Of a stretch of DNA of 64,000 nucleotides, positions 61,842 to 64,000 are shown one piece after another. The position numbers and the translations under genes were made by a program. The stretch is taken from the NCBI GenBank assembly GCA_021850325.1, contig JAJZMF010000029.1:1-64000 (forward strand), read 5' to 3'. The notes below the pieces were generated by a model. That model saw only the letters and a program-made list of their open reading frames with translations. It searched no databases and had not been told where the DNA came from. Every line of letters starts with the position of its first letter. The stretch's first letter is position 1. This stretch comes from Actinomycetes bacterium. Lineage in GTDB: Bacteria; Actinomycetota; Acidimicrobiia; Acidimicrobiales; Palsa-688.

Positions 61842-61928
61842 GGAGGGATGGCAGAGCGGCCGAATGCGAGGCTCTTGAAAAGCCTTGGGAGTGCAAGCTC
61901 CCCGTGGGTTCAAATCCCACTCCCTCCG
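61842..61928 (+). tRNA. tRNA-Ser (anticodon TGA), probable integration site
   Basis: 87 bases with a long variable arm, acceptor GGAGGGA/TCCCTCC and anticodon loop CTTGAAA. TACACT (61824-61829) is a candidate -10. The integrase gene starts 105 bases downstream of the 3' end, the usual arrangement when a mobile element has used the tRNA as attB. Confidence 0.95.
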
Positions 61929-61979
61929 CAGCTCAGAGGCACTTTTCTTCTTCTCTCCCGTCCCCCCTGAACCGGCCGC

Positions 61980-62032: not shown

Positions 62033-63193
62033 ATGCGAGGCAGCGTGAGGCAGAAGGGCGAGGGGCGCTGGCAAGTGCGCGTCTCGCACGGCCGGGGCCC
62101 GGTCACCGGGCGTTACCGGACGATCGCCCGCGAGGTGCGAGGGCGCAAGCGTGACGCCGAGCTGCTGGCGGCCAAACTGGTCGCCGAGGTCGAGCGGGGT
62201 GCCTACCGCGACCAGGAGGCCAACCGGCTCACCGTCACCGACCTGCTCGGACATTGGATGGCCCATATCGAGGCGCAAGGACGGGCGGCATCGACGCTCA
62301 CCCGGTACCGGTCCGTGATCTCGGTCAACATCCTGCCCCGGCTCGGCGGCGTGCAGGTCACCAAGCTCGGGCCAGCGCAGATCGACACCTTCTACGGCCA
62401 ACTGCGCAGTGCCGGCTTGGGGACGCTGAGCATCCGTAAGAACCATACGGTCCTGTCCGCCGCGTTCAACCAGGCCGTGCGCTGGGGTTGGGTGGAACGC
62501 AACCCTGTCGAGCGTGCCTCCCCGCCGACTGCACGACCGAAGGAGATCCGCCCTCCCAGTCGCGACCAGCTGCGCCAGCTCCTCGAGGCATGCATGGACG
62601 ACCACCAGGACCTCGGCAGGCTCATCTACGTGGCCGCCACCACGGGCGCCCGCCGGGGGGAGCTGTGCGGCCTGCGTTGGAGCGACATCGACCTGGGCAC
62701 TGGGTCGATGACCATTGCCAGGTCGATCTCCGACGCAGGCTCGGTCGTGGCCGTGAAGCGCACCAAGACCCACCAGGCCCGGCGCTTGGCGCTGGACCCG
62801 TCCACCGTCGCGGTGCTCGTAGACCAGCGCCGACGGGCCCAGGAGCTTGCGGAGGCCGCCGGCACCCGCCTCTCAGACGACGCCTACGTGTGGTCGCAAG
62901 CCGTCGATGCTGCCGCCCCGTACCGTCCGGACCGGGTCAGCGGTGCCTTCCGCACCCTGCGGGACCGCCTGGGCATGCATGACGTCACCTTCCACGGCCT
63001 ACGCCACTTCGCCGCCACGACGCTCGCGTCCCAGGGCATCGGAGTGCGGACGATCGCCGGGCGTCTGGGCCACGCCAACCCGGCAGTGACCCTTCGTACC
63101 TACGCCCACTTCCTCGACACGGCCGACCGTGAGGCCGCTACCGCCCTCGGGGCAGTTCTCGACGGCCTTCATCCGGCCTCCAGCAAGTGGTAG
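62033..63193 (+). CDS. int: tyrosine recombinase (phage/ICE integrase)
   Basis: The 386-residue protein has an N-terminal arm-binding region, a core-binding SAM-like domain (about 65-150) and the catalytic domain. TTGARRGELCGLRW carries Arg I, VKRTKTHQARRLAL the Lys region, TFHGLRHFAATT the His-x-x-Arg, and RLGHANPAV the second His. TLRTYAHF carries the Tyr nucleophile. All catalytic residues are present, so it may be active. It faces away from the tRNA-Ser, so the element should extend to the right. Confidence 0.95.
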   Translation: MRGSVRQKGEGRWQVRVSHGRGPVTGRYRTIAREVRGRKRDAELLAAKLVAEVERGAYRDQEANRLTVTDLLGHWMAHIEAQGRAASTLTRYRSVISVNILPRLGGVQVTKLGPAQIDTFYGQLRSAGLGTLSIRKNHTVLSAAFNQAVRWGWVERNPVERASPPTARPKEIRPPSRDQLRQLLEACMDDHQDLGRLIYVAATTGARRGELCGLRWSDIDLGTGSMTIARSISDAGSVVAVKRTKTHQARRLALDPSTVAVLVDQRRRAQELAEAAGTRLSDDAYVWSQAVDAAAPYRPDRVSGAFRTLRDRLGMHDVTFHGLRHFAATTLASQGIGVRTIAGRLGHANPAVTLRTYAHFLDTADREAATALGAVLDGLHPASSKW

Positions 63194-63252: not shown

Positions 63253-63465
63253 TTGTCGGACCTTCTGGTGTCCTCCGGGGCCAGCCGGGAGATCGTGTAC
63301 CAGGTGGACGCCGGCCCGTGCGCCGGAGCGCTGGCCGGCGCGCTAAGAGACGCTGAGTCACGCGGACTGGATGTCTACGAGGGCCTGCTCAGCCTGATAG
63401 CAGCGCGCCCCCTCACCGGCACAGATGATCGAGCTGCGCTGCTGTACAAGCGGGTCGAGAGATAG
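63241..63465 (+). pseudogene. fragment of a MobF/TraA-type conjugative relaxase
   Basis: 75 codons after an in-frame TAG (63238). DLLVSSGASREIV, ALRDAESRGLDVYEGLLSLI and DDRAALLYKRVER resemble a stretch found towards the C-terminus of actinobacterial TrwC/TraA relaxases. No relaxase catalytic region is present. It is probably a leftover of conjugation genes. The 130 bases after it hold no recognised gene. Confidence 0.4.
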
Positions 63466-63595: not shown

Positions 63596-63910
63596 AGCCC
63601 GCGCGCAGCTAAGATCTCGAACTGCGAGAGGAAGTCCCATTGCGACCGCTATATAGGGGGCATGCCGCTGCTCTGGTTAGCCGTACCCGGGCGAGAGGAC
63701 CGGGCCTACCTGGAGCGCAATATCATCGCTCTGCTGAGCGCGATGACTGGGGGTTCCGAAAGAGCTTCGCCGAGCTGGTTGGGCCACCAGGCGGTGAACC
63801 CCGCCATCGCGAGGTCGGGGCTTTGGAACGTCAAATGTGTCGACGAGCGGTACTCGCCCGAGGTGCTCGTTCGCTTCGCCGCTCATGTGGGAGAGCCATG
63901 GCCCAGATGA
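63596..63910 (+). pseudogene. C-terminal part of a GIY-YIG-type endonuclease-like protein
   Basis: The frame opens after TGA 63593 and runs to TGA 63908. CDRYIGGMPLLWLAVPG, YLERNIIALLS and PSWLGHQAVNPAIARSGLWN fit the C-terminal half of a GIY-YIG-like family often found with restriction or defence genes. The recognisable similarity begins before the ATG at 63662, so the N-terminal part seems lost. If ATG 63662 is used it would encode 82 residues. It overlaps the next gene by 13 bases. Confidence 0.4.
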
Positions 63911-64000
63911 TCCCGCCTGGATACCCTGCGGGCACCAGCCTGGGAGAAAGGTTTGCATTTGAGGCCCTGCGCGGCCCCGAGGTCGAGCCGAGCTGGGTGG
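63898..64000 (+). CDS. start of a NERD-domain protein (runs off the window)
   Basis: ATG 63898 has GGAG 4 bases upstream. A second ATG at 63907 overlaps the previous stop (ATGA). The 34 visible residues (MAQMIPPGYP...SLGERFAFEALRG) resemble the N-terminus of nuclease-related-domain proteins, which are often fused to UvrD/DEAD helicases. The call rests on a short stretch. The identity of the full gene needs the sequence to the right. Confidence 0.45.
   Translation, partial: MAQMIPPGYPAGTSLGERFAFEALRGPEVEPSWV

What the first reader, a model, noticed from the sequence alone, without database searches (positions are those of the whole stretch)
63596..64000. GIY-YIG-like fragment overlapping the start of a NERD-domain gene: possible defence cargo
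The short GIY-YIG-type remnant overlaps by 13 bases with a gene whose visible N-terminus looks like a NERD domain. Nuclease-plus-NERD/helicase pairs on a mobile element would suggest an anti-phage or anti-plasmid system, perhaps one not yet described. Only 34 residues of the second protein are visible.
Basis: inference. Interest (0 to 1): 0.52.

Follow-up and report, generated by a model that had tools for sequence, protein, structure and literature searches.

The report
Broken remnants of two defence genes
The end of this stretch holds the broken-off tail of one DNA-cutting gene running into the broken-off head of another, left behind in an old mobile element beside a tRNA gene; both resemble genes thought to help bacteria resist viruses, but neither can work here and the two are not usual partners.

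Summary
Window 63596-63910 encodes the C-terminal ~100 residues of a GIY-YIG-type nuclease. Its stop overlaps by 13 bases the ATG (63898) of a NERD-domain gene. The right-hand sequence (contig to 72,524) shows both are wrecks. The first lacks its N-terminal half, including the GVY, RVGT and catalytic-Arg region. It belongs to PADLOC candidate family PDC-M57B, which I identify by motif and predicted fold as GIY-YIG. The NERD gene keeps only ~101 of ~575 residues (half the NERD domain, no helicase) and ends against a convergent, intact TM0106 RecB-like nuclease-helicase gene. A likely relaxase-helicase scrap lies just upstream; an integrase and tRNA-Ser(TGA) complete the picture of a decayed integrative island.

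The proposed pairing is not conserved. A DUF6884 gene (PDC-M57A) lies within 1.5 kb of the GIY-YIG gene in 79 of 98 loci (once fused to it); a NERD gene is adjacent in 1 of 98, of another subfamily. None of 22 contexts around NERD relatives contains the GIY-YIG gene; 6 contain DISARM-like drmA/drmB.

So: not a new nuclease-plus-NERD system, but debris of two known or candidate defence families.

The parts
61842..61929 (+). tRNA-Ser (TGA), likely attachment site of the element
   Evidence: ARAGORN; its 3' half is repeated, followed by an 86%-identical integrase start, on a contig of a same-genus genome
62033..63193 (+). tyrosine integrase, 386 aa, intact frame
   Evidence: Phage_integrase E 3.3e-23; PHROG 1 integrase E 1.7e-75
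63253..63465 (+). 70-aa fragment resembling the region after the helicase domain of TraI/TrwC-type relaxase-helicases (probable remnant)
   Evidence: Matches frames of 469-1367 aa in 3 other genomes of 396, best E 2.8e-5; two of those loci carry AAA_30 and TraI_hel_assoc_N. No hit in Pfam, NCBIfam, PADLOC, PHROGs, plasmids or IMG/VR
63596..63910 (+). C-terminal remnant of a PDC-M57B GIY-YIG nuclease gene; keeps the positions of the invariant Glu and Asn, lacks the GVY, RVGT and Arg motifs
   Evidence: PDLC04714 E 1.7e-16, 5.8e-18; alignment with intact relatives
63898..64000 (+). start of the truncated NERD-helicase gene; on the contig it runs to 64266 (122 aa), with homology only to 64197
   Evidence: PF08378 E 1.7e-7; 45% identical over 100 aa to a 574-aa NERD-UvrD-like helicase; nothing more of that protein elsewhere in the genome

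Best explanation
The two overlapping frames are dead fragments of two separate defence-type genes in a decaying integrative island at tRNA-Ser(TGA). Fragment 1 is the last ~100 residues of a PDC-M57B GIY-YIG nuclease. Fragment 2 is the first ~101 residues of a ~575-residue NERD-UvrD-type helicase. Probably they were once neighbours in one transcription unit (inferred from the 13-base overlap of the stop of one with the start of the other), and deletions removed the front of the first and the back of the second. As they stand neither should have activity: the first lacks the two strands and the helix that carry three of the five GIY-YIG motif positions, the second lacks half of the NERD fold and the whole motor. 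In intact relatives (inferred, not shown here) the GIY-YIG protein would cut DNA at sites recognised by its DUF6884/YaaA-like partner, and the NERD-helicase would be a helicase-coupled nuclease, sometimes alongside DISARM-like DrmA/DrmB.
For: Truncation of fragment 1: profile 137/153-231 of 238 only; the intact family is ~230 aa with invariant G40, Y42, R61, G63, T64, R78, E166, N205 and the remnant aligns only from about residue 131. Truncation of fragment 2: match stops at residue ~100 while relatives have frames of mostly 575-650 aa; no further match of the full helicase in the genome or in the next 500 bases beyond chance. Wreckage around: probable relaxase-helicase scrap, integrase and tRNA-Ser. 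Same hotspot in a same-genus genome, with a truncated copy of the same integrase. Families not paired.
Against: The 13-base overlap is the spacing of coupled genes, and one other actinobacterial locus (G202) has a NERD-UvrD gene directly after its M57B gene, so some functional link cannot be excluded. Single assembly of 49 contigs; a local misassembly could mimic truncation. No attR found. Fragment 1 could still be translated as an 82-aa protein.
Confidence: 0.88

Rival explanations
1. A rare, real operon: M57B GIY-YIG nuclease plus NERD-helicase, the helicase taking the place of DUF6884, here seen only as a broken copy.
For: 13-base overlap; G202 locus L027 has M57B followed directly by a 748-aa NERD-UvrD protein and no PDC-M57A match in its genome; its M57B is among the closest to the remnant (52% over 82 aa).
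Against: 1 of 98 loci; the G202 NERD-UvrD is another subfamily (no tblastn match to the window's NERD fragment) in a cluster with an HNH-type gene and a large helicase gene (names by eye), so chance clustering in a defence island explains it. 0 of 22 NERD contexts hold M57B.
Confidence: 0.08
2. A split-gene or assembly artefact: the genes are intact in the organism and the draft contig is wrong.
For: Draft genome, 49 contigs; reads could not be inspected.
Against: The missing parts are nowhere else in the assembly, the assembly is 95% complete, three successive genes are partial, and flanking genes are intact frames.
Confidence: 0.03
3. Fragment 1 is a functional mini-protein (for instance a DNA-binding or inhibitory leftover).
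For: Open frame with ATG at 63662; keeps conserved Glu and Asn.
Against: Lacks the core strands of the fold; the 68 relatives aligned for the model cover the full domain (rows were chosen for covering it). One short relative is known (Deinococcus plasmid, 166 aa as annotated).
Confidence: 0.01

Closest known systems
PDC-M57 (PADLOC phage defence candidate; M57A = PDLC04712, M57B = PDLC04714)
   Same: Fragment 1 is a C-terminal piece of M57B
   Different: N-terminal half and catalytic motifs missing; M57A absent from the genome
NERD-UvrD helicases (PF08378; PADLOC RTasNERD-Hel PDLC03813, C3a187 PDLC01087)
   Same: Fragment 2 matches residues 1-100 of PDLC03813 (E 5e-7)
   Different: Second half of NERD and the whole helicase missing
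DISARM and DISARM-like operons (DrmA/DrmB)
   Same: Three of the nearest intact NERD-helicases (G114, G147, Rhodococcus opacus pROB02) sit beside DrmA and DrmB
   Different: No DrmA in this genome; tree placement of the 100-aa fragment unresolved (support 45)
TALON (YprA-like helicase with NERD nuclease; PMC12458937, passages read)
   Same: A NERD protein in an operon with a YprA-family helicase
   Different: TALON is described as rare and largely in Chloroflexota, with TPR-CSD and TBP genes; not tested against here

Membership tests
PDC-M57 system | M57B profile match | tested here: met
   E 1.7e-16, but only the C-terminal third
PDC-M57 system | complete M57B protein | tested here: not met
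   profile 1-136 absent here and elsewhere in the genome
PDC-M57 system | M57A (DUF6884) partner | tested here: not met
   no match in G000, while 5 of the 7 other genomes given have one
GIY-YIG nuclease (the M57B family, intact relatives) | fold | tested here: met
   The rows shown by VIA-align are all GIY-YIG (UvrC 85-88 of ~90 residues, Z 5.1-5.3; R.Eco29KI Z 4.4). Middling Z; plain Foldseek gave nothing significant
GIY-YIG nuclease (the M57B family, intact relatives) | GIY / YIG / Arg / Glu / Asn motif positions | tested here: met
   GxY, RxGT, R78, E166, N205 invariant in 68 sequences; assignment to the catalytic roles is recalled
GIY-YIG nuclease (window fragment) | GIY, YIG and Arg motifs present | tested here: not met
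   fragment starts after them
NERD (PF08378) | profile match with the E-D-ExK core | tested here: met
   E 1.7e-7 over profile 4-59; E51, D53, E67, K69 shared with six relatives
NERD (PF08378) | complete domain | tested here: not met
   profile 60-111 missing
NERD-helicase | helicase domain | tested here: not met
   frame ends at 122 aa; rest absent from the genome
DISARM | drmA present | tested here: not met
   0 matches in G000 with PDLC02575
Integrative element | integrase next to a tRNA gene | tested here: met
Integrative element | direct repeat (attR) at the other end | tested here: not met
   no second copy in L003, contig 61001-72524; in the genome only tRNA-Ser(CGA) within 2 mismatches

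The most novel reading that the evidence does not exclude
M57B GIY-YIG nucleases can swap their usual DUF6884 partner for a NERD-UvrD helicase; this locus and the G202 locus would be two independent traces of a nuclease-plus-helicase form of the PDC-M57 system.
Probability: 0.08. Interest if true: 0.45.

Novelty: new member of a known kind. Interest (0 to 1): 0.17.

Why it matters
By itself little: the locus is debris of known or candidate defence families. It matters as a correction (the right-hand sequence removes the proposed new pair) and as a pointer to two better questions: what the widespread, apparently little-studied DUF6884 plus GIY-YIG pair does, and why NERD-helicases recur in a DISARM-like branch.

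Tried and rejected
Tried: family scans of the fragments in Pfam, NCBIfam, PADLOC and PHROGs. Only PADLOC saw fragment 1. Phage records held no relative of fragment 1; IMG/VR held none of fragment 2. Plain Foldseek against PDB gave nothing significant for the M57B model, and a profile search of PDB sequences gave nothing meaningful; the fold call rests plus motifs.

Rejected: that the GIY-YIG fragment is part of the DISARM-like operons. The ORF before the NERD gene in those operons (512, 507 and 690 aa) shows no GIY-YIG match (sequences read). Rejected: that the missing NERD part follows in another frame (only chance-level matches). Unresolved: whether the NERD fragment descends from a DISARM-linked or a stand-alone helicase (bootstrap 45). 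Not found: attR. A search for NERD within the short DrmA loci was uninformative because the flanks were too short; it was redone with larger regions.

Limits: the genome-contig scan kept 80 of 114 confirmed loci. Of 101 loci located I dropped three as duplicates of contigs already held (L035, L051, L093), leaving 98. In one search, 14 of 98 had no downstream and 11 no upstream ORF by my rule. Of 87 upstream ORFs I passed on 86 (L117, open at the end, left out). One search printed 25 of 35 families and 25 of 78, so a NERD among the upstream genes could be unprinted; the NERD profile looked at all ORFs of 60 aa or more within 6 kb and found two loci only: L027, which was itself in that profile, and L026, about 7.7 kb upstream of its M57B gene by start and on the other strand. 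One search's 79 of 98 comes from an iterated profile and is more generous than the curated Pfam counts (26 of 84 downstream, 35 of 86 upstream).

Full report
What is there. The window is bases 1-64000 of a 72,524-base contig, so the right-hand sequence could be read. Beside tRNA-Ser(TGA) (61842-61929) lies a complete tyrosine integrase (62033-63193). After it come three broken genes in a row. First, a 70-aa frame (63253-63465) that resembles the region behind the helicase domain of TraI-type relaxase-helicases (weakly: best E 2.8e-5; domains of two of the matched loci). Second, the frame 63596-63910. Third, the frame starting at 63898 and ending at contig position 64266. Then, on the other strand and ending at 64254, stands an intact 1210-aa frame with a TM0106 RecB-like nuclease domain (TIGR03491, E 5e-70) and AAA_11/AAA_12 helicase domains; its first ~120 residues are probably not coding, because relatives match from residue 121.

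Fragment 1. It matches only the C-terminal part of PADLOC's PDC-M57B: 153-231 of 238, E 1.7e-16; 137-231 as a genome match. PDC-M57B occurs in 12 of 396 sampled genomes of the phylum including this one, but among 99 near relatives, this genome included, only in this one; 80 loci were taken from named species genomes (114 confirmed) and 5 from IMG/VR. Intact members are about 230 aa. In 68 of them G-x-Y, R-x-G-T, one Arg, one Glu and one Asn are invariant, the expected spacing of a GIY-YIG nuclease (role assignment recalled). The model of one member has mean pLDDT 95.9 and pTM 0.92. VIA-align rows are UvrC GIY-YIG domains (Z 5.1-5.3, 85-88 of about 90 residues) and the restriction enzyme R.Eco29KI (Z 4.4) (Z under 8 is middling by the tool's own note, and Foldseek alone found nothing). 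The remnant aligns from about residue 131: it keeps the Glu and Asn but has lost the GVY and RVGT strands and the Arg helix. It cannot be a working GIY-YIG nuclease.

Fragment 2. Residues 1-101 match NERD-helicases (45% identity to the 574-aa protein of genome G114 over 100 residues), including the E51, D53, E67-x-K69 core shared with six aligned relatives. Homology ends at 64197, in the middle of the NERD domain (profile 4-59 of 111). The remaining ~470 residues, with the UvrD-like helicase seen in relatives, are not in the genome.

Are the two partners? No general pairing. I located M57B genes in 101 loci, 98 after dropping duplicates. Pfam on the next gene downstream (84 loci) found DUF6884 in 26 and NERD in 1; on the gene upstream (86 loci) DUF6884 in 35. 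With an iterated profile, 79 of 98 have a DUF6884-like ORF on the same strand within 1.5 kb. In an uncultured actinobacterium the two are fused in one 453-aa frame (L042:2229-3587; DUF6884 E 2.1e-42 and PDC-M57B E 1.2e-70). PDC-M57A is this DUF6884 family. The single adjacent NERD gene, in genome G202, is a 748-aa NERD-UvrD protein of another subfamily, beside an HNH-type gene and a large helicase gene (by eye; Pfam). The NERD fragment itself finds nothing near M57B genes. Conversely, no M57B gene lies in 22 contexts of NERD relatives, whereas DrmA and DrmB lie beside the NERD-helicase in 6 of the 22.

How it most likely arose (inferred). The overlap of stop and start suggests the two genes were once translated in sequence on an integrative element. 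Deletions then removed the front of the first and the back of the second. The same tRNA-Ser is a hotspot: in a same-genus genome the tRNA 3' half recurs on two further contigs, one followed by the first ~130 bases of an integrase 86% identical at the DNA level to this one. No attR was found.

How the intact families probably work (inferred). Pfam's authors relate DUF6884 to YaaA and to DNA-lesion binding (PMC11701544, passages read). A DUF6884 recogniser plus a GIY-YIG cutter would make a 'find an odd base, then nick' system. PADLOC also sees a resemblance of two DUF6884/YaaA-like partners to DpdC. None of this was tested. In the held library I found no paper naming PDC-M57, two naming DUF6884, and four holding both 'NERD' and 'GIY-YIG'. 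I read passages of two of those four: one (PMC10952713) lists both domains among many defence systems, the other (PMC10853773) describes both among nucleases near Dnd modification genes. The other two I saw only as listing entries.

Verdict. A true observation, an interpretation that the next 300 bases undo, and low interest for this locus. The GIY-YIG/DUF6884 system itself, and NERD-helicases in DISARM-like operons, deserve more attention than this place in the genome.

Noticed in passing
L163:5060-16001, L172:3876-12300, L175:5961-15134, L176, L179, L182, L240: NERD-UvrD helicase genes sit beside DrmA and DrmB in a DISARM-like branch (6 of 22 NERD contexts; one more, L240, among 20 DrmA loci), in L163, L172 and L175 preceded by an ORF of 507-690 aa without Pfam hits; none of the 12 highest-scoring DrmA loci (L223-L234) has one.
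   Followed up: partly
L042:2229-3587: DUF6884 (PDC-M57A) and the GIY-YIG nuclease (PDC-M57B) fused in one 453-aa frame, supporting a two-part system.
   Followed up: partly
contig C39 64254-67886 (just right of the window): Intact TM0106 RecB-like nuclease fused to a Dna2/UPF1-type helicase; found in 4 of 21 near relatives including this genome, not in the two other genomes of the genus, so probably acquired island cargo.
   Followed up: partly
L161:1418-2732 (same genus) and L003:6709-6816: In a sister genome an HTH-nucleotidyltransferase gene and a HepT-looking gene (names by eye) lie before a copied att core and a truncated integrase; a scrap 72% identical to the HepT-looking gene lies behind the TM0106 gene here.
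   Followed up: no
contig C39 67896-69959: 687-aa frame of repeated 'FVAN...DASSGALVRVIS' units (beta-propeller-like, by eye) with a repeat relative on the same contig as the att core in the sister genome.
   Followed up: no
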